Shown here piece by piece: positions 10,733-34,119 of a DNA stretch of 37,821 nt. Within the stretch, counting starts at the first letter, position 1. Each line of letters opens with the position of its first letter. The notes under the pieces were generated by a model. That model saw nothing but the letters and a program-made list of their open reading frames with translations, had not been told where the DNA came from and searched no databases. This DNA is from a virus. A program made the translations under genes and the position numbers. The stretch covers positions 1 to 37,821 of the IMG/VR virus record IMGVR_UViG_3300006028_000020, one strand, 5' to 3'.

Positions 10733-11151
10733 CGCTGAAGCAGGTCAATCAGTTCGCGACGGGAGACGCAGAAAAGCTCGGCCGTCAGCTGTCCGCGTTC
10801 GAGGACAATGTGCACGCCGAGTGCTCCGATATCCGCTTGAACTTCGCGCCAGTGCTCGACGATGTGTCGCGCGTCGCGCTCCCTGCGCCAGCGCCGACTG
10901 CATTCGCGTTGCTCCCTGATCAGCAAGCGACATTCGACACCACCCGGGGCAACCTCACCGCGATCTTGCCACCACTTTCGCCAAAGAACTTCGGGCGACG
11001 TTTCGTGGTCATCAAGCGCAAGCCCGGTAACACATTGAACGTGATTTGCCAGGACTCAGCGGTGCTGCTCAATTACGGAGCATTCCCGTTGGCGATCACA
11101 GCGACCGGAGTCACAGTTTTCTACTGCGACGCCGCGGGGTACTACAAGTGA
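10729..11151 (+). CDS. Hypothetical virion protein (140 aa)
   Basis: The GTG start overlaps the preceding stop (GTGA), and its own stop overlaps the next GTG, so the gene is tightly coupled between the adaptor and the nozzle-like protein. Residues about 1-45 are helical and 60-140 are beta-rich (FGRRFVVIKRKPGNTLNVIC, ITATGVTVFYCDAAGYY). The C-terminal pattern resembles small beta-sandwich domains of phage structural proteins. The role is unknown. Confidence 0.65.
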   Translation: MTLKQVNQFATGDAEKLGRQLSAFEDNVHAECSDIRLNFAPVLDDVSRVALPAPAPTAFALLPDQQATFDTTRGNLTAILPPLSPKNFGRRFVVIKRKPGNTLNVICQDSAVLLNYGAFPLAITATGVTVFYCDAAGYYK

Positions 11152-14100
11152 GCGACCTGCTCCCGATCCTGTTTACCCGCGGGCAGAACGAGGGAATCGA
11201 CCCGCGCGTCGCGCCGCCCGACGTGCATGTCGTCGCACAGAACGTGCGCTGGCGCAAAGACGGTCGACCAGCGAAGCGCTATGGCTTGCGATCAATCAGC
11301 CTGAGCGGACTGAACTCAGTGAGCGGCGGCCCGCAGTACACGTCCTCACCGGTCAACGCCATCACGCAATGGAGCGGGGCTCCGCTGCTGTTGCTCGGCT
11401 CCGGCGCGCGTCAGCTGAATGGCGCGACCTGGACCGACGCGGACATCGCGTCCCGCAACGAGATCTCGCATTGGGGCCCAGGCGAACGTTCGCCCGTTGC
11501 CATCTCCGATCAGAAGACGTTCGCGAATGCGTCGGTCGGTTACTCGAGTGGGCTACTGCTCTACGCCTGGGACGACGGAACGGTAACGTACACCTGCGCG
11601 CGCACTCCGAGCGGGTCGGTGGTCATTTCGACCACGGCATTCGCGACGGCCACCTACCCGCGCGTGGTGAGCACGAGCTCTTTTCTCTACCTGTTGACCA
11701 GGAACGGGACGACGCTCAACTGTACTACGTTCGACCCGACAACGGGTCTCCCAGGAGCGACAGTCGCAATCGGGACACTGAACAACGCGGGGGACTATTT
11801 CGACGCGGTCGGCCGTGGCAGCGATTTCGTGGTCGTGTACCAGAGCGCCGTCAACACACTGACGGTCAAGCTGCTCACTGCCGTATCTTCGCCGGCTGTG
11901 ACGCAGACGCAGACGATCGCGTCGGCCGATGTTGGTGTCCAGCATACGAAGATGACGATCGCCGGCACAAGCTCGAGCTCCGTGTTTGTTGCGTGGCTCG
12001 AAACGACGCTCGGCACAGTCTGCTACGCGGCGCTGGCGAACGCGGTCACCTCCGTTTCGCTCACGCGCACCACGGTCGGCGCAGCGACGGTAAACAACGC
12101 TGACCAGCCCGGCGTGGTCATCGACGACGCGAACAATGCCGGCCTGTACTACGGCGGGCTGTCGGGCGGCGGCGCGAATCTGAGCTTCGTCTCGGTCGTC
12201 AACATTAGCGACTCGGGCAGCGTCGGGACGATCGCTGTTCACCAGTTTTGCCGGCTCGCCAGCAAGCCATTCAATGGGCCAGCGCAGGGCACGCTCGGCA
12301 GCCAAGACGGGCGCTACGTGTGGGTGCACACGCACAATAGCGACGCGACGAACTCAGGAACGCTGTGGGACACGCAGCGCACCTTCTACTTGATGCGCAT
12401 GAGCCGCGGCGCAACGGACGTGACGTTTCGTCGCCAGCTGCACACGCCAAACATGGTCGGCTCGACGGGCTCATTCACGTCGCATTTGGTCGACGTAGTG
12501 AACACGTCCACAGGATTCGGCACGAATACCGGGTTCTTCACGGTGCTGCTGAACACGGTGCGCTTCGGAAATGCGGCAGCCGAGTGTTACAGCGTCGAGA
12601 GCCTCTCATTTTTCTCGCTGTTCGTGACGCAGCGCTTTGCCGCGCGCTCGACCGTGCAAGCAGGGCGGGCGCTCCAAATCTCAGGCGGCGCGCTCGCGGA
12701 GTTCAATGGACTTTGCGAGGAGACCGGGTTCAGTAACTTCCCCGTCATCTTCAGCGTCGTTGGCGGCGGCGGCGGCGCCCTCTCGAGCGGCACTTACCTC
12801 TACGTCGCGGTGTTCGAATACCTCGATGCGCAGGGACGCAGACACCGGTCGGCTCCGAGCGATCCGTTTACGTTCGCGAGCGGTGCCAATACCTCGGCCA
12901 CGCTCCAAATCGAAACGCTCATCGCGCAAAGCAAGGCGGCAAACGTATCGGTGCACGTGTACCGCACGCTGGTCGGCGGCACGACCTACCATCGCGTGAC
13001 GCCGAACGTCGGCGCCCCGAACGCCTTCTCTGGCACCTTCGTCACGTACGTCGACTTGATGGGCGACACCGCCGCGGCCGCAAACGAGTTCATCTACACG
13101 GACGGCGGCGTCATCCCCAATCAGCTCCCCCCGCCCTGCACGTTCATGTGTCTCTGCAATGGGCGGCTGTGGCTCGGTGGGCAAGCCGATCGGTGCGTAC
13201 TCACGTCGAGCAAACTGCTCGTCGATGGCGAGCCGACGCAGTTCGGCGACCCGAGCGATTTCGAGTTCGAAGTGTTCCTGCCCGAGAGCAACACCGGGCT
13301 AGCATCGCTCGATGGCACGCTCGTCGCGTTCGCTCGCGAAGCCATCTACTTGGTGACCGGAGACGGGCCAGACGACCAGGGCGTCGGCGGCTACAATCCG
13401 CCGCAGAAGCTACCGTGTGACGTGGGGTGCATCGACTGGCGCTCGGTCGTCGAGACATCGATCGGCGTGTTCTTCCAGTCGAAGCGAGGGATCTACCTGC
13501 TGCCGCGCGGGTTCAACACACCGGTATTCATTGGCGCCGAGGTAGAGGACACGCTCGCGTCATTCCCGATCTGCAAGTCGGCGACACTTGTCTCGGCTCC
13601 GGCAAATGCTTCCGGACAGGGGGAAATCACCGTTCGCTTCGTGATGACCGACACGGAGAACGGCGTGAATACCACCTGCCTGGTGTACGACCTGAAGACT
13701 CAAGGGTGGAGCGTCGATACCAATATCGGTGTCGGCTCGCAGGGCCCGGGCGGCACGTGGCTCGATACGTTCGTTCAGTCGGGCGCCAACACCGGCTCGC
13801 TCAACCTGCTTTTTGCAGAAGACCGCACGACGTACGCGATCAGCTCGACGTTCATTCCGACGAAGCTCGGGACGGGTGACATCCGACCGTTCGGCGTTGC
13901 CGGCTACGGCGGATTCGAGCGCGTGGTGCTCGTCGGAGAATTCCGCGGCGCAGCGAACGTGAATGTGTCCGTGTCCGTCGATGGCGCGACGACCGACGTT
14001 TACCCGTTCCAAGTCACCGCGGCGGACGCGCCGGACGGCTCCGTGTATCTCGACGTGACACCGAAGGTCCGGCTCGGGTCGTCCATCCGCGTGACGGTGG

Positions 14101-14210
14101 TCGACGCGACGAGTTCCGGACCGACCGAGGGCTTCATCGCGCAGGCGCTGTTCATCGAGAGCGAGACGATCGGAAAGACGAAGCGGCTTGCCGCAGCGAG
14201 GAAAGCCTGA
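11148..14210 (+). CDS. Tail-nozzle-like (tail tubular protein B type) structural protein (1020 aa)
   Basis: The N-terminus FTRGQNEGIDPRVAPPDVHVVAQNVRW...KDGRPAKRYGLRS matches the opening of large beta-propeller proteins that form the tail nozzle of podoviruses. Repeated beta motifs run through the chain. The segment at about residues 690-790 (GEPTQFGDPSDFEFEVF, LASLDGTLVAFAREAIYLV, VFFQSKRGIYLLPRG) is typical of tail tubular protein B-like blades. I set the start at the GTG at 11148, which overlaps the stop of the previous gene (GTGA). It is the largest structural gene and follows the adaptor, as expected for the nozzle. The exact family is uncertain. Confidence 0.75.
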   Translation: MSDLLPILFTRGQNEGIDPRVAPPDVHVVAQNVRWRKDGRPAKRYGLRSISLSGLNSVSGGPQYTSSPVNAITQWSGAPLLLLGSGARQLNGATWTDADIASRNEISHWGPGERSPVAISDQKTFANASVGYSSGLLLYAWDDGTVTYTCARTPSGSVVISTTAFATATYPRVVSTSSFLYLLTRNGTTLNCTTFDPTTGLPGATVAIGTLNNAGDYFDAVGRGSDFVVVYQSAVNTLTVKLLTAVSSPAVTQTQTIASADVGVQHTKMTIAGTSSSSVFVAWLETTLGTVCYAALANAVTSVSLTRTTVGAATVNNADQPGVVIDDANNAGLYYGGLSGGGANLSFVSVVNISDSGSVGTIAVHQFCRLASKPFNGPAQGTLGSQDGRYVWVHTHNSDATNSGTLWDTQRTFYLMRMSRGATDVTFRRQLHTPNMVGSTGSFTSHLVDVVNTSTGFGTNTGFFTVLLNTVRFGNAAAECYSVESLSFFSLFVTQRFAARSTVQAGRALQISGGALAEFNGLCEETGFSNFPVIFSVVGGGGGALSSGTYLYVAVFEYLDAQGRRHRSAPSDPFTFASGANTSATLQIETLIAQSKAANVSVHVYRTLVGGTTYHRVTPNVGAPNAFSGTFVTYVDLMGDTAAAANEFIYTDGGVIPNQLPPPCTFMCLCNGRLWLGGQADRCVLTSSKLLVDGEPTQFGDPSDFEFEVFLPESNTGLASLDGTLVAFAREAIYLVTGDGPDDQGVGGYNPPQKLPCDVGCIDWRSVVETSIGVFFQSKRGIYLLPRGFNTPVFIGAEVEDTLASFPICKSATLVSAPANASGQGEITVRFVMTDTENGVNTTCLVYDLKTQGWSVDTNIGVGSQGPGGTWLDTFVQSGANTGSLNLLFAEDRTTYAISSTFIPTKLGTGDIRPFGVAGYGGFERVVLVGEFRGAANVNVSVSVDGATTDVYPFQVTAADAPDGSVYLDVTPKVRLGSSIRVTVVDATSSGPTEGFIAQALFIESETIGKTKRLAAARKA

Positions 14211-16651
14211 TGCCGAACCCTGACGGAACGATGACACCCGAAGAGCGGCAGCGCGCGCTGCTGAGCGCGCAGCAAACGCCGGTCAATCCTGGGTATACGC
14301 ATCTCGGCGAGGCCGGCGGCCGGCACGAGACGCAGCTCGGGGTAGACCAGGCTGTGGCGCGTGGCTCCGAATTGGGCGGGAGTCACCAATACGATTACGG
14401 CCTCGGCGTTCAGAGCTCGCTCTTCGGTAACCTCAGCGACGCCGAAGCGCTCGCAAAGCGGCAGGGCGATTTCGGGCTCGGCACGAACAACAACGCTCCG
14501 ACCGCTGCCATGCTCGGCAACGCGCAGGCGACGGGGGACAAGTACAGCGGACAGTTCGGCACCGACGCCAGCCGAGCGGGCGACTTGTCGGCAGCCGCGG
14601 GCGCGCGCGGGCTCGGCAGGTTCCAGGGCGACACTGGCGCATACGACGCGGCGACCGCAAACGCGGCGAACGACCGTGCGCTACAGACCGGCGCCTACGG
14701 CGCGCTGATGAATTTCGCGAGCCAGGGACCGGGGCCGAGCGCAGCTCAGGCGCAGCTGCAGCAGGCGACGAACGCCAATACGGCGAACGCACTCGCGATG
14801 GCCCGCTCCGGCCGCGGCATGGGTGGCAGCGCAGCGGCGCTTCGGGGAGCGGTCGCGCAAAATGCCCTCACGCAGCAAGGCGCGAACGCGCAAGCGGCCG
14901 AGCTCCGCGCGAACGAGAATACGGCATTTCAAGCGCAGCGCCTCAGCGCCATGGGCCAAGCAGGGAACGTCGCCGGCCAGGTCGTCACGGGCGACCAGGG
15001 GACAGGGCAACTCGGGCTCGCGGGGGCGCAGTACGCGACGAACACCGCTCTGCAGGGAACGCAGCTCAACGACGCCACCTCGCAGGCATGGGCGCAGCAG
15101 CAGATGGCCGGGCAGCAAGCGGGACTGGGCGCGGAGATGGGCGCTCAGACGCAGCAACTGAACCTCAACGCGACGGCGCTCGCGGGCCGCGAGTCCGAGT
15201 GGGCATCGGCGAACCAGACGCATGGCATCGACACCGGCAACGCGACGCAAGCCGGCATCGCTGACGCGAACCGTCAGCAGGCATACACAGGCGCGGCCCT
15301 CTCCGGGGCGGCGGGCGTCATCGCCGCGACCTCCGACGAGCGCTACAAAACGAACATCCAGCCGCTGAGCAATCAGGGTCCGGCCCCGCTTCCTAACCAA
15401 GCTCCGGCGCAGTCGACCGACTCGCTCGGACCGTCGAAGGCAAGTCAGGATTCGGCGGCGCACGCGGCGGAAGGCAGCGCGATCGGCGGCACGGCGGGCA
15501 GCGTCGCTGGAGGCGTGATCGGTTCAGCAGTTGGCGGTCCCGTTGGCGGAGCGCTCGGGAGCATGGCCGGTAACTTCGCCGGCAAGGCGCTCGGCAAACT
15601 CGCGTCCGACATTCGTGCGAAGGACAACATTCAGCCGCTGAGCTACACGCGCGGGGCGCCGCTTGTCGACAGTGACGGCGAGGACCCGCTGATGCACTAT
15701 GCGCGGCTGCGCGGCATCCCGGTGGACTACGACGACGCCGACGAGCCTCAGCAGCCGGCGGCGACGCAGCGGGATCCGCACAACCCGAGCCGCCTCATCT
15801 CCTCGTATCAGCCAATCTCGGACGCCTCGCGCGGCGCGGGCGGCTCGAAGAGCGCCTACCACGCGCTGCTCTCGATCGCTGACCAGCATGGGCTTTCGAC
15901 CGCGGCTGACCAGAAGGACGTAGCGAAGTACGCGGCAATCCCGGCGGACAAGATACCGAAGGCGGACGACGGGACCAATTCGATGACGGGCACCGGGCCT
16001 GACGCCAGCAAGGCGTTCGGCGCCGGTCTGTCGGCGGCCGGACAATCGCTCACGTCGGGGCCGCTGAGTGCGCGCGCATATCAGCGCTTCGCTCGCGACA
16101 ACTCTCACCCGATTTTGAGCGAAGGGGACGCGCTGCTGGCCGACTCGGCGCGCAATGCCCCGGGCAGCATCTACCAGTACAAAGACCCGAAGGACGGCGC
16201 GGGCACCTACGTCGGGCCGATGGCGCAGGACCTCGCTGCGCACCCGGTCACGCGCGGCGCGGTCACAGCGGAGCCCGGTACCGGGAAGCTGCAGGTCAAC
16301 GGCGCGCGACTCGCCACGGTGAACACCGCGCAAAATCACGCACAGCAGAACCAGCTCGACGCGCTTGACGCAAAGCTCGCTGAACTAGAAGGCCTGCTCA
16401 AAGGCTCGAGCAAGTACCCCGAGCCGCAAGAGCCCGGCGCGGAGGCCACATCCGACGAGCGCTACAAGCGCGACACCGTCAAGCTCAGCGCAACCCCGCG
16501 CGGCGCGCCGTACCCGGATTACGCGCCCGCCAAACAGTCGCCCTATCAGCCGATCGCTGACGCGAGTCGGTACGCCGGGCGTGTCACGTTTCGGCCTACT
16601 GGTTCCGACCCGTACCCGAGCAACCAGCCGTACCAGAGGGCCGCGCGCTGA
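14210..16651 (+). CDS. Virion protein with three S74-like motifs (813 aa)
   Basis: Residues about 1-360 are Ala/Gln/Asn/Gly-rich and helical, resembling ejected internal proteins. The motif SDERYKTNIQPL occurs near residue 375, SDIRAKDNIQPL near 466 and SDERYKRDTVKL near 748. This is the opening signature of the S74 intramolecular chaperone (SDxRxKxNIxPL), which trimerises and trims tail spikes. After the second copy come YVGPMAQDL near residue 665 and a C-terminal coiled coil (HAQQNQLDALDAKLAELEGLL), as in S74 domains. Between copies 1 and 2 lies a glycine-zipper stretch (GGTAGSVAGGVIGSAVGGPV). The start overlaps the previous stop by one base. Whether it is ejected, a spike, or self-cleaving is unclear. 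Confidence 0.7.
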   Translation: MPNPDGTMTPEERQRALLSAQQTPVNPGYTHLGEAGGRHETQLGVDQAVARGSELGGSHQYDYGLGVQSSLFGNLSDAEALAKRQGDFGLGTNNNAPTAAMLGNAQATGDKYSGQFGTDASRAGDLSAAAGARGLGRFQGDTGAYDAATANAANDRALQTGAYGALMNFASQGPGPSAAQAQLQQATNANTANALAMARSGRGMGGSAAALRGAVAQNALTQQGANAQAAELRANENTAFQAQRLSAMGQAGNVAGQVVTGDQGTGQLGLAGAQYATNTALQGTQLNDATSQAWAQQQMAGQQAGLGAEMGAQTQQLNLNATALAGRESEWASANQTHGIDTGNATQAGIADANRQQAYTGAALSGAAGVIAATSDERYKTNIQPLSNQGPAPLPNQAPAQSTDSLGPSKASQDSAAHAAEGSAIGGTAGSVAGGVIGSAVGGPVGGALGSMAGNFAGKALGKLASDIRAKDNIQPLSYTRGAPLVDSDGEDPLMHYARLRGIPVDYDDADEPQQPAATQRDPHNPSRLISSYQPISDASRGAGGSKSAYHALLSIADQHGLSTAADQKDVAKYAAIPADKIPKADDGTNSMTGTGPDASKAFGAGLSAAGQSLTSGPLSARAYQRFARDNSHPILSEGDALLADSARNAPGSIYQYKDPKDGAGTYVGPMAQDLAAHPVTRGAVTAEPGTGKLQVNGARLATVNTAQNHAQQNQLDALDAKLAELEGLLKGSSKYPEPQEPGAEATSDERYKRDTVKLSATPRGAPYPDYAPAKQSPYQPIADASRYAGRVTFRPTGSDPYPSNQPYQRAAR

Positions 16652-18558
16652 TGGCGAAAGTCATCGACGTGACCGATGTCCCGGAGCTGCCCGGCGCCGG
16701 CATGCTCCATTTCGACGACGGGCGACCGCCGCTGATGGCGCTGCCGGAGATCGCTGGCCACTACCGCGAACAGCTGGGGCAGCCGGACGAGCGGCTCGCG
16801 GAGAACGACAAGCCGTCGAGCGACACCCGCACGGACGCGGGCGGGGACTGGCGGAACAAGTGGGGCGGCACGCTCTACCCGCGAGTCGTCAACCCGAACC
16901 CCGAGCCGCCGCCGACCCCCGCGGCGCCCGCCGCAGCGCCCTCCCAGCCTGCGCCCGCCGCGCCCGGGGGAACTCCATACGGCCCCCCTCCGCCGCCTGC
17001 TCCGCCTGCGCAACCAGAGCCGGCTCCGCAAGACACCGTCCAGCAGGCGCGTGACGTGGTCGCGCAGCGTGCCGCAGCCGAGCTCATTCGTGGCACCACG
17101 GGCGGCGGCCCAGCTCGCCCGGCCGGCTACGCCCCGGTGTCGCAACGAACGACGGTCGAGGCGGGCCCCGCGTACGATCCGCAAGCCGCGCGCGAACGTC
17201 TCGCCGCCGATCAATCCGTACTCGACGCGCAGCTCGGTCAGCAGGCGACGGCGAAACAGATCGCCGACGCACAGGCCGCGAAAGCCGCCGCCGACCATCT
17301 CGCGGCGCAGCAGCAGCTTGCCAAGCAACAGGCGGAGATCCTGCGCAAGCAGCAGGCGTATCAGCAGCAGAATCAGCACATGGAGCGCGAGCTCGCTGAC
17401 TATTCGCAGTCCGCGCAGCCCGACCCGAATCGCTTCTTTTCGCGGCGCGAGCCGATCGCGAACATCATGAGCGTGATCGGCCAGGCGCTCGGCGCGGCCG
17501 GCGCGAGCCTCGGGCATTCGCAGAACTTTGCATTCGAGTATGTGCAGCAGCAGATCCGAAACGATATCGCGGCGCAACAGCAGGCGTACGAGGCGGGGCG
17601 CGCGGACCGCAATAACGCACTCGCGCGATTCGCCAACTACTACCACGGCGATATCGACATGGCGAAAGCCGGGCTTCAGCAGGCCATGAACAAGGTCGCC
17701 GAAACCGAGGTCAGCCAATTCGCCGCGCAGGCGCAGAGTCGCACGATTTCGGCGAATGCCGCCGCACTCGCCGCGCAGTTCCAAAAGGACTCGCTCATGC
17801 GCGAGCAGCAAAAGGCGGAGCTCGCTCTCGGTAAGACAACGACCGCCACGGAAGACAAGTTCCACCAGGCGGAGGGCGGCGGCCCGCGCCCGCTCACGCC
17901 GGCCGAGCAAGAGGCGAGACTCAAGCTGCTCGGAAAGCCGGGCAAGGACCAGGGTGCGCTCGGCCTCACCCCGCAAGCGCTCGCGCGCCAGAAGGCGACC
18001 TACGGCACCAAGAAAGAGCAGATTGCGCGCCTCTATTCAGCTCTCGAAGAGGAAGCGAAGCTGCAGGGTGTCGCCATCGACAAGGCGACCGGGACCGTCA
18101 TCGACCCGAAAACGGGGCGCCCGGCTACCGAGCTGCCGCAGTCCCCGGGCATCGGTTACGTCGCCGGGCACCTGCCCGACTCTCTTGCCGGCGAAGAAGG
18201 GCGCGCGCTGCGGCGCGCTCGAGCGAACAGCGCCCGCCTGCATGCGCAGACGATTTACGACAAATCGATCACCGCCGAGGAGGCCGAACACGAGATCCCG
18301 ACCGTCATGGGCAAGACGCCCGGCGACGCGCTTCGCAGCCTGAAGCAGCGCCTGCACGAGCTCTCGCAGTACGACTACCAGCTCGACTCAACGGCGGCGA
18401 CCATCGACCCGCGCATGGTGAACGAGCGCACGCGCGCACAGAAAGACGTGAACGTTTCGCGCGCTACCGGGGAGCCGCTTGAAGGCCCGCGTCCGACGCC
18501 ATCGGAGAACATCGTCGGAGCGCCCGAGCCCGACACGGACACCGGTGGTGGCCCGTGA
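16651..18558 (+). CDS. Probable internal virion / ejection protein (635 aa)
   Basis: The start overlaps the preceding TGA by one base. After an N-terminal region of about 80 residues comes a Pro/Ala-rich hinge (about 85-130). A long Ala/Gln-rich coiled-coil region follows (about 180-250 and 300-400, with AAQQQAYEAGRADRNNALAR). A helical C-terminal half ends in a Pro/Gly-rich tail. Composition and position, between the S74-like protein and the membrane-zipper protein, match the internal proteins that podoviruses inject ahead of DNA. No enzyme motif is visible. The next gene overlaps by GTGA. Confidence 0.65.
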   Translation: MAKVIDVTDVPELPGAGMLHFDDGRPPLMALPEIAGHYREQLGQPDERLAENDKPSSDTRTDAGGDWRNKWGGTLYPRVVNPNPEPPPTPAAPAAAPSQPAPAAPGGTPYGPPPPPAPPAQPEPAPQDTVQQARDVVAQRAAAELIRGTTGGGPARPAGYAPVSQRTTVEAGPAYDPQAARERLAADQSVLDAQLGQQATAKQIADAQAAKAAADHLAAQQQLAKQQAEILRKQQAYQQQNQHMERELADYSQSAQPDPNRFFSRREPIANIMSVIGQALGAAGASLGHSQNFAFEYVQQQIRNDIAAQQQAYEAGRADRNNALARFANYYHGDIDMAKAGLQQAMNKVAETEVSQFAAQAQSRTISANAAALAAQFQKDSLMREQQKAELALGKTTTATEDKFHQAEGGGPRPLTPAEQEARLKLLGKPGKDQGALGLTPQALARQKATYGTKKEQIARLYSALEEEAKLQGVAIDKATGTVIDPKTGRPATELPQSPGIGYVAGHLPDSLAGEEGRALRRARANSARLHAQTIYDKSITAEEAEHEIPTVMGKTPGDALRSLKQRLHELSQYDYQLDSTAATIDPRMVNERTRAQKDVNVSRATGEPLEGPRPTPSENIVGAPEPDTDTGGGP

Positions 18559-21455
18559 GCGGCGCCGCGAAAGCCTACGTCCAGACGCGGGACGGCGACG
18601 TAATCGAGGTACCGAAGGACGAGGTCCGCGCGAAGCTCGAGAGTGGCGACTACCTGCCCGCGACCGCGGCCGACAAGGCAGCCGCAGACAAGCTCGCAGC
18701 CAACTCGACCCTGAAGGCCAAGGCGAAAACCTTTGGCGAGTCCGCGGCGGCCGGAGCTATCGACACCATCCAGGCCCCGATCGCCTTGCCGCTGCGCGCA
18801 AACGCGGCGCTTTGGGGCGACGAGGATCCGCTCAAGAACATCGGCGGCCGGCAGACCGTCGAGAATCTGGCGACCATTTTCGGGGACGCGCGCGAGGGCG
18901 CGACCGGCAAGACGGGCGAGGCCTACGGGCGCGAGTACAGCGAGAACGCGCGGGCGCGCGCCGAGGCTAACCCCGGCACGGCCACGGCGGGCAACGTTGC
19001 GGGCTCCATAATCGGCGGTGGCGCGCTTTCGAGCGGAGCCGGGGCAATCGGCGGGACCGCGGCCAAGGCGCTTGGTGGCGGCATTGTGGCGCGCGCGGCG
19101 GGTGCATTCGCGGGCGGCGCGCTCGAAGGAGCCGCATACGGGCAGGCCCAGGCCGGAGAGGAGGCGTATCTCCACAACATCCCGCTCTCTGGCGAAAAGC
19201 TCATTGCCGCCATGGGATGGGGCGCGCTCCTCGGCGGCGGCGTTTCGCTGGCCACGCACGGCGCTGGCGCGCTACTTCGGAGCGGGTCACGCGGGGCAAC
19301 GCCGCTCGACTCGCCGCGGCTGCCGGACAACGGGCTGAGCGACGTAAACGAGCTCGGCATCGAAAATGCCGAATTCAATCGCGACCCCGCAAGCATGCGG
19401 GATCTGACCCTGCACCGTGGCGCCTATGCAGGAGCGACGCCCGAAGAGGTGCAGCAGATCGCTCGCGGCGAAATCCCGACGAAGAACTCCGGCGGGGTTT
19501 GGCCTGACGGCTCCCCCATGGAGGGCAAGCCATTCGAGCCGGTATCCGTGAACGTGGAGAGCGACGGGCAGATCCACCTGAACGACGGGCGGCACCGGTT
19601 GCAAGCCGCCAAGGAAGCGGGCGCGAAAGAGATCGTCGCGAAGGTCCGCCGCTACGACGCCGAGGGCAACATGGTGTCCGAGCAGGTGTCGCCGGTGAGC
19701 ATCGGGTCGCTCGACGCTGCGGCGGAAGCGGAACCGGGCGCGCTATCGAGCGCGGTCCGCAGCTTCGCCGACGAGCGCACGGCCAAGGCGCTCGGGGCGC
19801 GCGGCTCGACCCTGAAGAAGCTCGGTCGCACTGCGGACGCAGCCGAATCGACCATGCACGACATGGCGCAGACGGTTCGCGGCGTGACGCTCGACGACGG
19901 CACCCCTGTTTTTCGCGCTCTCGATTCCCAGTCCGACCTTGCCGAGCGCGTGGCGCAGGCCAAGCAGGAAACCGGCGCCAAACTCGGCGCGTTCCGCGAA
20001 GAGGCCGACAAGATTTTCGAGGCTCACCCCGAGATCGCGCCGGACGCTCGAGCGATAGCCGAGCGCATCCAAAAGCAAGTGGTCGAGCCGCTCGAGACGC
20101 ACCCGAGCTCCGTCACGCGCGCGCAGGCCGGCCCGATCCGGCAAGTGGCAAACGACCTCCGTGAGCTCGCCTCGCCAGCGGTAGGCGGCAGCGAGCCGTT
20201 CCCGACCAAGGTGTCGGACCTGACGAAGCTGCGGCAATCACTCGACGAGCAGATCTACCAAGCCAAGCGCGGAGTGAACCTCTCGCAGCAGGGCGCGCCG
20301 CCGAACCTGAAGGACTTGGAGCAGGCGCGTGGCATCCTCGAAGAGTCGATTGAGGCAGCTCAGGACAAGGCCGCGACGTTTTTCGACAAGAAGGCGGCGC
20401 TTTCCTACAAAGAGCTGAAAACCCAGTACCGCCACCTCTCGCTCGCTTCCGACATTGCCGGCGCGGCCGAGCTGCAAAACCTCGGAAACCGCGTCGTGTC
20501 ACCGAGCGATTACGGCGCGAGCGCGATCGGCGGAATCCTCGGGGGCGGGCCCGTTGGCGCACTCGCCTCGGGCATCGCTCACAAGGCCGTCCGCGAGCAC
20601 TCGAGCGCGGTGCTCGCGGTCCTCGCCGACAAGCTGGCCAACAACCTCGACGGCAAGCTCGAATCCGGACTCGGCGCATTCTTCCGCGAGTCGACGGCGC
20701 GCGCTTCGGTCGGACTGGACCAGGCGGGGAAGCTTTCCGGCGCTGTCCCGATTCGGCGCATCGCGACGCCCGCCGCCGTCGAGGCGTTCAGGGGTCGGTC
20801 AAAGGACCTCGCCGCGGCCTACGACAAGCGCGTGGCGGAGCTTTCGAACGCGAACCGGGACATGGGCGCAGGCGTGCGTGCGCACATGCAAACGGCGATG
20901 GGGAGCGCCTACGAGTCGATGCCGCGCCTGACGCAGGCGGCGACCGTCACGGCGACGCGCGGCGCGCAGTACCTGCAGACGCAACTGCCGAGCGGGACGA
21001 ACGCGCCAACCATGTTCCAGCCGACGCGCAAGATTTCGCCGAGTGACTTGCAGATCCGCGAGTTCGCGCAGAAGTGGGCAGCGGTGGCGAACCCGCTGAG
21101 CGTGGTCGACGACCTACGCCGCGGCACGGTCACGCACGCGCAGATCGATGCGATAAAAAACGTCTACCCGCAGATGTACGCGGAGATCCAGACCAAGGCG
21201 CTCGAGAAGATCCGCGACCTCGACGCCAAGGGCAAGCGCATGCCGTTCAACGACCGGCTGCAGCTCGACTTGTTTCTTGACCTGAACGGCGCGGGTGAGC
21301 CGACCCTCGCGGGTGATTTCGTGGATCGCGTGACCGCTGTCCAGGCAGCGAAGCAGCAGCAAGACGCACAGCAAAAGCCGCACGGATCCGGCGCGGCGCT
21401 CGGCAAGATTTCGGCATCCCGCCAAGCGGGTTCGGCGACAGTTCTAGGAGAATGA
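18555..21455 (+). CDS. Large ejection protein with glycine zippers and a ParB-like patch (966 aa)
   Basis: Residues about 140-240 contain several Gly/Ala zipper segments (SIIGGGALSSGAGAIGGTAA, GALLGGGVSLATHGAGALL), suited to membrane insertion during genome delivery. Residues about 328-368 resemble a ParB/sulfiredoxin-like fold: VSVNVESDGQIHLNDGRHRL, with D344-G345-R346-H347-R348, then QAAKEAGAKEIVAKVRRY. The long remainder is helical with coiled coils and another Gly-rich patch near 655-675. In the Gly-zipper and helical parts it resembles podovirus internal virion proteins that form a periplasmic conduit. The ParB-like part could bind nucleotide or DNA, which is inference. The GTG start overlaps the previous stop. 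Confidence 0.65.
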   Translation: MSGAAKAYVQTRDGDVIEVPKDEVRAKLESGDYLPATAADKAAADKLAANSTLKAKAKTFGESAAAGAIDTIQAPIALPLRANAALWGDEDPLKNIGGRQTVENLATIFGDAREGATGKTGEAYGREYSENARARAEANPGTATAGNVAGSIIGGGALSSGAGAIGGTAAKALGGGIVARAAGAFAGGALEGAAYGQAQAGEEAYLHNIPLSGEKLIAAMGWGALLGGGVSLATHGAGALLRSGSRGATPLDSPRLPDNGLSDVNELGIENAEFNRDPASMRDLTLHRGAYAGATPEEVQQIARGEIPTKNSGGVWPDGSPMEGKPFEPVSVNVESDGQIHLNDGRHRLQAAKEAGAKEIVAKVRRYDAEGNMVSEQVSPVSIGSLDAAAEAEPGALSSAVRSFADERTAKALGARGSTLKKLGRTADAAESTMHDMAQTVRGVTLDDGTPVFRALDSQSDLAERVAQAKQETGAKLGAFREEADKIFEAHPEIAPDARAIAERIQKQVVEPLETHPSSVTRAQAGPIRQVANDLRELASPAVGGSEPFPTKVSDLTKLRQSLDEQIYQAKRGVNLSQQGAPPNLKDLEQARGILEESIEAAQDKAATFFDKKAALSYKELKTQYRHLSLASDIAGAAELQNLGNRVVSPSDYGASAIGGILGGGPVGALASGIAHKAVREHSSAVLAVLADKLANNLDGKLESGLGAFFRESTARASVGLDQAGKLSGAVPIRRIATPAAVEAFRGRSKDLAAAYDKRVAELSNANRDMGAGVRAHMQTAMGSAYESMPRLTQAATVTATRGAQYLQTQLPSGTNAPTMFQPTRKISPSDLQIREFAQKWAAVANPLSVVDDLRRGTVTHAQIDAIKNVYPQMYAEIQTKALEKIRDLDAKGKRMPFNDRLQLDLFLDLNGAGEPTLAGDFVDRVTAVQAAKQQQDAQQKPHGSGAALGKISASRQAGSATVLGE

Positions 21456-32263: not shown

Positions 32264-32655
32264 CCCTGCTCACCCCCGAGGATATCGCGGCGCGCGATCT
32301 CGATGCGAAGGCCATCGCGCGTGAGCTCGGCTGCTCGCGCTCGTACGCCTACTCGGTCATGGGTGAGATTGGCTCTTTCCGTTTCGGCCGCCTCCGCCGC
32401 GTCTCGCGCTCTGATTTCGACGACTGGAAAGCTGCGCACAAATGCCCAAGCACAAGCTCTGGAAACGCAAAGGGATCTATTACACATGGATCCTCGGCAA
32501 GCGCGTCTCTACGGGATGCCGCGACGAGAAGGCTGCGCAGCGCGAGGCGTCCGAGCTCGAGCGAGCAGCAGTGGACCCAAAGTATAAAGCCGCGCACGAA
32601 ACCAGTTTCGGCACGGCCTGCCAGCTCTTCAAAGAGGAGCTCCAATTGCGGGTGA
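32260..32655 (+). CDS. Excisionase-like MerR/HTH_17 protein (131 aa)
   Basis: Residues about 12-58 carry the winged helix-turn-helix typical of excisionases: LDAKAIARELGCSRSYAYSV, a short wing (SFRFGRLRRVSRSDFDDWKA), and then the basic end. Excisionases steer integrase toward prophage excision and often precede int. The GTG overlaps the previous stop. After residue 62 the frame continues for about 69 residues through the start of int in another phase. That tail is Ser/Arg-rich and may be non-functional, or the gene may overlap int by design. Confidence 0.65.
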   Translation: MTLLTPEDIAARDLDAKAIARELGCSRSYAYSVMGEIGSFRFGRLRRVSRSDFDDWKAAHKCPSTSSGNAKGSITHGSSASASLRDAATRRLRSARRPSSSEQQWTQSIKPRTKPVSARPASSSKRSSNCG

Positions 32656-33539
32656 CGATGGGCAAGCGCTCGGAGGCCACCGTCGACTTCTACTCGTACA
32701 AGCTCGCTCATCTGGTGCGCTTGCTGGGAGCTGACCGCCCGATGTTCGAGGTCAACTCGGCGGCGGTGAGCGGTTACCTGAAGAAGCGCGCGGGCGAGGG
32801 TGCGCACGCGAGCTCGATGAACAAGGAGCTCATCGCGCTACGGCAGGTGCTCAAGTACGCGAGGCAGCGCGGGGACTTCGTCGGTGACATCGACGCCGTG
32901 ATGCCGATCGGGTTCGATCACGAGTACGAGCCGCGAAAAACCTTTCTCAGCCCGGATCAGGCGTGGGCGTTGCTCGGCCTGTTCGTGCAGAAGCGCAAGG
33001 GGGCTTCGTTGGCGGACGGCATCCTGCTCGCCGCGCGCACCGCGTTCTTTCTTGCCACGGCCTGCCGGGACGGCGAGCTCGCCCGGGCCCGCCGCGAGGA
33101 CATCGACCTGTCCAATTGGCTGGTGACGATCCGAGGCACCAAGACGCGCCTGTCCAAGCGCGTAGCCCCGGTGGTGCTCCCGGACTGCCGCCGGTTCCTG
33201 ATTGGCGCCCTGATGGCCCCTGAGCGCCGCGACGGACTGCTCTTCGGCCGGTGGCACAATCCGACCCGTGACCTGGCCCTGGCCTGCAAGCTAGCCGGCG
33301 TGCCGCGCGTCACCCCGAACGACCTCCGCCGAACGCACGCGCATTGGCTTCGGGCCAGCGGCGCCCCGCCGTCACTCATCGGCCCGGTGCTCGGCCACGC
33401 CGATAGCCGCATGACCGAGCGCGTCTACGGACGCTTGGAACCAAGCGAATTGCGAGACGAATTGGCGAAAAGGACAGGCCAAATTCAGTCCAGCGGCGGC
33501 TCTTTAAGCGCAAAACCAGGTAAAAACAGCCATGAATAA
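32442..33539 (+). CDS. int: Tyrosine-family integrase (365 aa)
   Basis: The enzyme recombines attP with a chromosomal attB. The N-terminus (MPKHKLWKRKGIYYTWILGK) looks like an arm-binding domain, and a SAM-like core-binding domain follows (about 60-130). The catalytic domain has Arg209 (TACRDGELARAR), Lys234 (RGTKTRL), the box II segment NDLRRTHAHW (Arg296), His319 (LGHAD) and the nucleophile Tyr329 (VYGRL). Asn293 stands where box II normally has His (HxLR). The gene starts inside the excisionase-like frame and ends 7 bases before the tRNA-His-like attP core, a typical arrangement. Confidence 0.95.
   Translation: MPKHKLWKRKGIYYTWILGKRVSTGCRDEKAAQREASELERAAVDPKYKAAHETSFGTACQLFKEELQLRVTMGKRSEATVDFYSYKLAHLVRLLGADRPMFEVNSAAVSGYLKKRAGEGAHASSMNKELIALRQVLKYARQRGDFVGDIDAVMPIGFDHEYEPRKTFLSPDQAWALLGLFVQKRKGASLADGILLAARTAFFLATACRDGELARARREDIDLSNWLVTIRGTKTRLSKRVAPVVLPDCRRFLIGALMAPERRDGLLFGRWHNPTRDLALACKLAGVPRVTPNDLRRTHAHWLRASGAPPSLIGPVLGHADSRMTERVYGRLEPSELRDELAKRTGQIQSSGGSLSAKPGKNSHE
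33483..33496 (+). other. Possible integrase arm-type site, int side of core
   Basis: ATTCAGTCCAGCGG matches ATTCAGTTCAGCGC at 33677-33690 at 12 of 14 positions, in direct orientation. The two lie on either side of the attP core, as arm-type integrase sites do. It is inside the 3' end of int. Confidence 0.4.
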
Positions 33540-33546
33540 GCGAGAA

Positions 33547-33598
33547 GCACTGGATTGTGGCTCCGGTTGTCGCGGGTTCGATCCCCGTCACTCACCCC
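33547..33598 (+). other. attP: attP core: 3' half of a tRNA-His gene
   Basis: The segment contains the anticodon arm CTGGA-TTGTGGC-TCCGG with anticodon GTG (His). The T arm follows (GCGGGTTCGATCCCCGT), then the 3' acceptor strand CACTCAC and discriminator C. The 5' half of a tRNA is absent, and the end reads CCT where CCA would be. This is the classic form of an attachment site matching a tRNA 3' end, so that integration restores the host tRNA. It lies 7 bases after int. Confidence 0.85.
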
Positions 33599-33614
33599 TA
33601 AATACGGCAGAAAT

Positions 33615-33648
33615 ACCCGGCGTCGACCATCCACAGGTCGCGCCGGGT
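33615..33648 (+). promoter_or_regulatory. Strong hairpin just beyond attP, sib-like or terminator
   Basis: ACCCGGCG (33615-33622) pairs with CGCCGGGT (33641-33648), and CGACC (33624-33628) with GGTCG (33636-33640), with one unpaired T and a 7-base loop. That is 13 pairs. No T-run follows, so it is not a standard terminator. Its place on the far side of attP from int is where lambda carries sib, the RNase III retroregulator of int mRNA. Confidence 0.55.
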
Positions 33649-33669
33649 GCGGCTAATCGCGCTGGTTAC

Positions 33670-33690
33670 AGTTCAGATTCAGTTCAGCGC
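33670..33690 (+). other. Possible arm-type repeats on the far side of attP
   Basis: AGTTCAG occurs at 33670-33676 and 33681-33687, 11 bases apart, about one helical turn. The second is part of ATTCAGTTCAGCGC (33677-33690), which has a near-copy within int at 33483-33496. Such short direct repeats flanking the core suggest integrase or accessory-factor binding. Confidence 0.4.
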
Positions 33691-34119
33691 ATGCCGCGAC
33701 TGGCTGAGGCTGAGTCTCTTTTGGTGCCGCGCGGTCGGTGGGCCGAACAGGACCATCGCGTCTACTTTATCGAGTGCAACTTCGAGCTCGTGAAGATCGG
33801 ATGGTCGAGCGACCCGCACGCTCGACTCGAGGGGCTCCGGACATCGAACCCCTACCCTCTGGAGCTGCTGGCACTGGTCGACGCGGGGCGCGATCTAGAA
33901 CAGGCGCTCCATGTTGAGCTCGCCGATTACCGAGTAACTGGAGAGTGGTTTCGGAAAAGGGGAGCGCTCCGATCTTTCTTGACGGGGGACGCGGTTCGTG
34001 TCGCGTACTGGACACCGGGGCGGCACAAGGCGAAACGCCATAAGCTGTTTGCGCACATCCAGGCCGAGGGCGAGCGCAATCGGTTGGGCGATTTCGACCC
34101 GCCGCGGAGGGCGTCGTGA
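33691..34119 (+). CDS. GIY-YIG-type (MUG113/T5orf172-like) protein (142 aa)
   Basis: Residues about 25-95 carry the family pattern: VYFIECNFELVKIGWSSDPH, ARLEGLRTSNPYPLELLALV, and EQALHVELADYRVTGEWFRK. These are compact GIY-YIG-like nucleases of phages and mobile elements, role usually unknown. I chose the ATG at 33691; the open frame extends back to an ATG at 33532 across attP, and that extension is tRNA-like rather than protein-like. No strong ribosome-binding site is seen. It is coupled to the next gene by GTGA. Confidence 0.7.
   Translation: MPRLAEAESLLVPRGRWAEQDHRVYFIECNFELVKIGWSSDPHARLEGLRTSNPYPLELLALVDAGRDLEQALHVELADYRVTGEWFRKRGALRSFLTGDAVRVAYWTPGRHKAKRHKLFAHIQAEGERNRLGDFDPPRRAS

What the first reader, a model, noticed from the sequence alone, without database searches (positions are those of the whole stretch)
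15328..16490. Three copies of the S74-chaperone opening motif in one protein
SDERYKTNIQPL, SDIRAKDNIQPL and SDERYKRDTVKL occur at about residues 375, 466 and 748. Peptidase S74 domains normally have a single such motif at the cleavage site in front of a trimerising chaperone. The second copy is followed, much later, by MAQDL and a coiled coil. The protein otherwise looks like an ejection protein, not a spike. Repeated motifs may mean duplicated, degraded or multi-cut chaperones.
Basis: partly seen in the sequence, partly recalled or inferred. Interest (0 to 1): 0.6.

Follow-up and report, generated by a model that had tools for sequence, protein, structure and literature searches.

The report
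Repeated self-cleavage motif in ejection protein
An internal protein of an uncultured short-tailed phage carries three copies of the self-cutting motif of the S74 chaperone but only one chaperone body; two copies are preserved by selection and many related phages have the same kind of repeat, so this one protein may be cut in more than one place.

Summary
The three motifs are real: SDERYK at aa 375, SDIRAK at 466 and SDERYK at 748 of an 813-aa protein (14210-16651, +). Each keeps the published S74 Ser-Lys dyad (SDxxxK). There is only one chaperone body ('donut', aa ~638-733). It is homologous to S74 by Pfam, profile-profile comparison and AlphaFold. SD2 is the normal 'cable', pushed about 160 aa away from the donut by a variable insert. 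SD1 is an extra copy, conserved in all six members of the window's clade while its linker is not. SD3 is found only in near-identical relatives and is probably incidental. Gene order suggests a T7 gp14-like ejection protein rather than a spike. Extra SDxxxK motifs recur in this class of S74 proteins: 25 strict copies against 1.0 expected, but 3 against 2.4 in 106 fibre-type S74 proteins. In the tree 22 of 64 proteins have two or more upstream cables, and copy number changed at least 11 times. I propose a trimeric S74 cutter that can cut at more than one cable, distal first, separating the N-terminal ejection domain, a Gly-zipper segment and the chaperone. Cleavage, trimerisation and virion location are untested. 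I found no earlier description.

The parts
14210..16651 (+). S74-bearing ejection-type virion protein, 813 aa
   Evidence: homologues with the same reading frame in L003, L006, L007, L008 and L021
14210..15271 (+). Ala/Gln/Gly-rich N-terminal domain, aa 1-354, with the family signature GPSAAQAQL ... ARSGRG ... LRANEN
   Evidence: Alignments A1 and A6; AlphaFold mostly helix but low confidence (pLDDT 43)
15272..15331 (+). Hydrophobic Ala/Gly helix before SD1, aa 355-374
   Evidence: Sequence; helix in the AlphaFold model (low confidence)
15332..15367 (+). SD1, extra cable SDERYKTNIQPL, aa 375-386
   Evidence: Present in all six clade members; 8/12 residues invariant, 7 of them with codon changes
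15470..15604 (+). Gly-zipper-like hydrophobic segment, aa 421-465, between SD1 and SD2
   Evidence: 18/45 residues invariant; sub-threshold Pfam Gly-zipper_Omp in relatives L006 and L008 (E 0.006 and 0.0025)
15605..15643 (+). SD2, cable SDIRAKDNIQPLS, aa 466-478, aligned with the single cable of other S74 proteins
   Evidence: Alignment A5 with S, D and K invariant in 48 proteins; strand at aa 471-476 in the model, pLDDT about 78
15644..16111 (+). Variable linker, aa 479-634, inserted between cable and donut
   Evidence: Mostly gapped in the clade: only 41 of 156 positions are shared by all six; much shorter in L007 and L008
16121..16408 (+). S74 donut plus C-terminal coiled coil, aa ~638-733 (IYQYKDP ... 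GPMAQDL ... helix aa 698-733)
   Evidence: Pfam S74, hhalign 98.5% to fibre-type S74, AlphaFold pLDDT 91-94 over most of it, viral fold hits to S74/ICA proteins
16451..16489 (+). SD3, motif SDERYKRDTVKLS downstream of the donut, aa 748-760
   Evidence: Only in near-identical relatives; absent from L006, L007, L008, L021; no Pfam match alone
15800..15841 (+). First copy of SSYQPISDASRGAG, aa 531-544, downstream of SD2
   Evidence: Repeated at 16538-16579 (aa 777-790) downstream of SD3; 1 in 500 shuffles as good without the motifs
11046..14210 (+). Upstream neighbour, 1054 aa, virion/tail protein
   Evidence: phrog_511, 4.7e-7
16651..18558 (+). Downstream neighbour, 635 aa, position of T7 gp15
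   Evidence: Gene order; no significant family match
18555..21455 (+). gp16-like ejection protein, 966 aa
   Evidence: phrog_342 internal virion protein with endolysin domain, 9.7e-5

Best explanation
The protein is probably an internal (ejection-type) virion protein of a temperate short-tailed phage that carries one S74 intramolecular chaperone/protease at its C-terminus and more than one substrate cable for it. Shown by sequence: one donut with its coiled coil, a normal but displaced cable (SD2), and an extra cable (SD1) kept by selection. Inferred: three chains trimerise through the coiled coil, a cable threads the neighbouring donut, and the chain is cut just before the Ser of SDxxxK, as in endoNF and MyRF. 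With two cables upstream of one donut, both cuts are possible in cis only if the distal one (SD1) is cut first. That would give the N-terminal ejection domain (aa 1-374, ending in a hydrophobic helix), a Gly-zipper segment (aa 375-465) and the chaperone remainder. If SD2 is cut first, SD1 stays on the ejection protein. SD3 lies behind the donut and is probably not a functional cable.
For: S74 homology of the donut: Pfam, hhalign 98.5%, E 1.8e-15, against fibre-type S74, profile hits to the solved S74-type structures 3gud and MyRF 7dc3 and to two further tail fibres, AlphaFold pLDDT 91-94, viral fold hits named S74/ICA. SDxxxK is the published catalytic motif (PMC10769870), and S587/K592 in MyRF are at i and i+5 with cleavage before the Ser and need a trimer (PMC8326128). 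SD1 conservation: 8/12 residues invariant against 1/22 in the following linker. Recurrence: 25 strict extra copies against 1.0, 22 multi-cable proteins of 64 with at least 11 changes on the tree. Specific to this class: 3 against 2.4 in 106 fibre-type S74 proteins. Hydrophobic stretches precede both canonical and extra cables more than background. Similar neighbour sizes around the gene in 11 relatives.
Against: No cleavage, trimer or virion data exist. The AlphaFold model docks only SD2 (SD1 pLDDT about 50), although the alignment paired SD2 with the other proteins' single cables and so favoured it. The cable-to-donut spacing is far longer than in known S74 proteins. Ejection-protein identity rests on gene order plus weak family matches to neighbours, and the protein itself has no ejection-family match. 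Some extra SDxxxK sites in the survey are chance (about 6.6 of 36 expected).
Confidence: 0.45

Rival explanations
1. Only SD2 is cut. SD1 is a non-cleaved structural element, for example a cap or a docking peptide for the preceding hydrophobic helix, and multi-copy proteins are single-cut S74 proteins.
For: AlphaFold docks SD2 and not SD1; SD2 is the copy aligned with the single cable elsewhere; many homologues manage with one cable.
Against: SD1 keeps exactly the catalytic Ser, Asp and Lys, whereas neighbouring linker residues vary; in L042 and L048 the extra copies lose the Arg but keep Ser, Asp and Lys.
Confidence: 0.3
2. The extra cables are assembly handles. SD1 of one trimer threads a donut of another trimer without or before cleavage, tying trimers into the larger ring that a gp14-like pore needs.
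For: Donuts act on cables of neighbouring subunits in MyRF (PMC8326128); gp14 is described as a hexameric pore (PMC8954989); copy number varies freely between phages.
Against: No direct evidence for threading between trimers; a trimer's donuts are expected to be occupied by its own cables.
Confidence: 0.12
3. The extra motifs are leftovers of repeated duplication or recombination around the cable and have no function of their own.
For: L031 shows SD-to-SD tandem duplication; SD3 with its repeated YQPIxDASR segment looks like a partial copy and is confined to near-identical relatives.
Against: SD1 is held over relatives at about 50-60% identity with synonymous changes in the codons; extra motifs are specific to this class and at chance level in fibre-type S74.
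Confidence: 0.13

Closest known systems
Peptidase S74 / intramolecular chaperone auto-processing (ICA) domain of phage tail spikes and fibres (endoNF, T5 L-shaped fibre, GA-1 neck appendage)
   Same: SDxxxK cable, YxY and GxMAQD signatures, predicted donut and C-terminal coiled coil
   Different: Two or three cables instead of one, cable separated from the donut by a long variable insert, preceded by hydrophobic Ala/Gly stretches instead of a beta-helix, in an ejection-type protein
MyRF ICA domain (animal transcription factor)
   Same: Ser-Lys dyad at i and i+5; paired Tyr residues facing the cut (Y615/Y617, by position Y655/Y657 here)
   Different: Single cable, beta-helical stalk, different biology
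T7 gp14-type ejection proteins (outer-membrane pore)
   Same: Position between a large tail protein and two further ejection-type genes; hydrophobic helices
   Different: No detectable sequence match; carries an S74 module that is not reported for gp14 in the review passages read here

Membership tests
Peptidase S74 (PF13884) | Score above the curated Pfam cut-off | tested here: met
   38.4 against 22 bits over three stretches. No single stretch reaches it in a genome search (18.9 bits), because cable and donut are apart
Peptidase S74 (PF13884) | Catalytic SDxxxK motif | tested here: met
   Three copies; motif as in PMC10769870
Peptidase S74 (PF13884) | Donut fold with C-terminal coiled coil | tested here: met
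   pLDDT 91-94 and long terminal helix; BFVD matches to S74/ICA proteins with probability up to 0.99 but E no better than 0.009; no PDB fold match
Peptidase S74 (PF13884) | Single cable directly in front of the donut | tested here: not met
   Three copies; SD2 lies 189 residues before the YxY of the donut. This is a departure in architecture, not in homology
Peptidase S74 (PF13884) | Trimerisation and self-cleavage | not testable with these tools
   Needs expressed protein
T7 gp14-like ejection protein | Place in the virion gene order before gp15- and gp16-like genes | tested here: met
   Portal, capsid, phrog_511 protein upstream and phrog_342 protein two genes downstream; similar order of gene sizes in relatives
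T7 gp14-like ejection protein | Sequence or fold match to gp14 | tested here: inconclusive
   No Pfam, PHROG or NCBIfam match of the N-terminal domain to an ejection family; AlphaFold of that domain uninformative
T7 gp14-like ejection protein | Present in the virion and ejected | not testable with these tools
   No virion data

The most novel reading that the evidence does not exclude
A self-processing ejection polyprotein: a trimeric S74 module cuts its own chain at several cables in order, distal first, releasing a membrane-active Gly-zipper peptide and an ejection domain with a hydrophobic C-terminus. Duplicating the helix-plus-cable unit would be a recurrent way for uncultured short-tailed phages to build multi-product ejection proteins.
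Probability: 0.3. Interest if true: 0.8.

Novelty: new variant of a known kind. Interest (0 to 1): 0.6.

Why it matters
S74 chaperones are described as one-cut maturation tools of spikes and fibres. Here the same module is found on internal ejection-type proteins of uncultured phages, with the cut motif repeated and conserved. If the repeats are cut, ejection proteins of these phages are self-processing polyproteins, which would give a simple, testable route to how hydrophobic pore proteins are kept soluble until assembly. The class is recognisable by sequence alone, and single-site Ser-to-Ala changes would test it directly.

Tried and rejected
Whole-chaperone duplication: rejected, because only one donut is present. 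Chance motifs: rejected for SD1 and SD2, kept open for SD3. Fold search of the model against the PDB gave nothing, probably because much of the model is disordered; the viral library gave S74/ICA hits. AlphaFold of the N-terminal domain failed (pLDDT 43). tblastn against 50,697 phage records found no relative of the full protein or of L042, L100, L087 or L029; the window's portal also found none. Donut-only queries hit mainly annotated tail fibres at low identity. A first genome scan with the full alignment found nothing. A second with the donut found 7 loci, of which L420 has three cables. Literature searches found no multi-cable S74 or S74 ejection protein; the library holds open-licence papers only.

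Full report
Observation. The gene at 14210-16651 (+) encodes 813 aa. All three have Ser, Asp and Lys spaced as in the catalytic SDxxxK motif of S74 domains (PMC10769870). In MyRF the two catalytic residues are S587 and K592, cleavage is before the Ser, the cut segment is a 'cable' through a neighbour's 'donut', and cleavage needs a trimer (PMC8326128).

One chaperone body. Pfam places Peptidase_S74 over three stretches, the best being aa 648-676, i.e. YQYKDP...GPMAQDL. Cut into short pieces, SD1 and SD2 match the first 15 and 13 positions of the profile and SD3 does not match. A genome search finds one S74 match in the window's 37.8-kb record. A profile of this class aligns to fibre-type S74 domains with 98.5% probability and E 1.8e-15 over 90 columns, from the SD motif to the coiled coil. 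It finds the solved GA-1 neck appendage chaperone (3gud) and MyRF (7dc3), together with two other tail-fibre structures (6f45, 8jov). AlphaFold of aa 355-745 gives pLDDT 91-94 over most of aa 638-733 with a long terminal helix. It makes a strand at aa 471-476, starting at the Lys of SD2, at about 78, and leaves SD1 near 50 without a strand. Foldseek finds S74/ICA proteins in the viral library but nothing in the PDB. SD2 is therefore the normal cable, displaced by a variable insert, and SD1 is extra. The docking preference is not independent evidence, since the alignment paired SD2 with the single cables of other proteins.

Conservation. Relatives in IMG/VR show SD1 and SD2 in L006, L007, L008 and L021 (48-64% identity), and SD3 only in near-identical L003-L005. 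Over six sequences SD1 has 8 of 12 invariant residues, 7 of them with codon changes; SD2 has 6 of 13; the linker after SD1 has 1 of 22 shared positions. The distant relative L025 has a single cable. A YQPIxDASR segment follows both SD2 and SD3, so SD3 looks like a partial recent copy.

A class, not a curiosity. Pattern and profile scans gave 80 non-redundant proteins with this type of donut; 24 have two or more SDxxxK. Examples are L042 (four), L276, L279, L269, L183 and L031 (three), and L226 and L272 (two). Strict extra copies number 25 against 1.0 expected. In 106 fibre-type S74 proteins collected and counted in a similar way the number is 3 against 2.4. On a tree of the donut the multi-cable state changes at least 11 times, and starred branches force at least 3; the alignment is short, so details are uncertain. 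In L031 whole SD-to-SD units are tandem duplicates. A further three-cable case lies in a bacterial metagenome bin (L420). In these proteins the 20 residues before canonical and extra cables are more hydrophobic than background (p 8e-23 and 8e-5); sequences are not independent, so these p values are indicative.

What the protein is. Upstream lie the portal (phrog_156), a capsid protein (phrog_14242) and a 1054-aa protein matching phrog_511. Downstream are a 635-aa protein and a 966-aa protein matching phrog_342, internal virion protein with endolysin domain. Eleven relatives keep a similar run of gene sizes around the S74 gene, as far as their loci reach. In T7 this slot belongs to gp14 (my knowledge), described as an outer-membrane pore with several predicted membrane helices (PMC8954989). 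No direct match to gp14 was found. An integrase suggests a temperate phage.

Mechanism. Shown: one donut, two conserved cables, hydrophobic segments before each. Inferred: trimer formation, threading and cleavage. With two cables upstream of one donut, two cuts in cis require the distal cable to go first. The products would be aa 1-374, aa 375-465 (containing the Gly zipper) and aa 466-813. A single cut at SD2 with SD1 as a structural element is the main rival.

Limits. No isolate relative was found in 50,697 phage records, no virion data exist, and only open-licence papers could be searched.

Noticed in passing
18555-21455, aa 322-373 of the encoded protein: The gp16-like ejection protein matches a ParB-like partition protein (phrog_1033, 2.9e-5; TIGR00180, 0.0021, below cut-off) in addition to phrog_342.
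   Followed up: no
L006, L021, L212, L235 (between cables and donut) and L064/L156 (behind the donut): A shared insert of about 90 aa (DLDHPDSHYDYRGAYLAGEGRG...QHGHPTFSTQSQYS...DGGxW) appears at different places of these proteins; no Pfam or PHROG match. It looks like a mobile domain.
   Followed up: partly
L042, L048, L041, L209, L212, L235, L420: Several extra cables run straight into a short leucine-rich helix (SDxHSKTxIRxLExQLxAL or SDARAKVLEDxxAA), so the repeated unit may include the first helix of the S74 domain.
   Followed up: partly
window 32442-33539: Integrase family match (phrog_1, 6.9e-43), so the phage is probably temperate.
   Followed up: no
window 33532-34119: Matches homing-endonuclease-type and unknown phage families (phrog_4284 1.4e-13, phrog_18411 5e-4) directly behind the integrase.
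   Followed up: no
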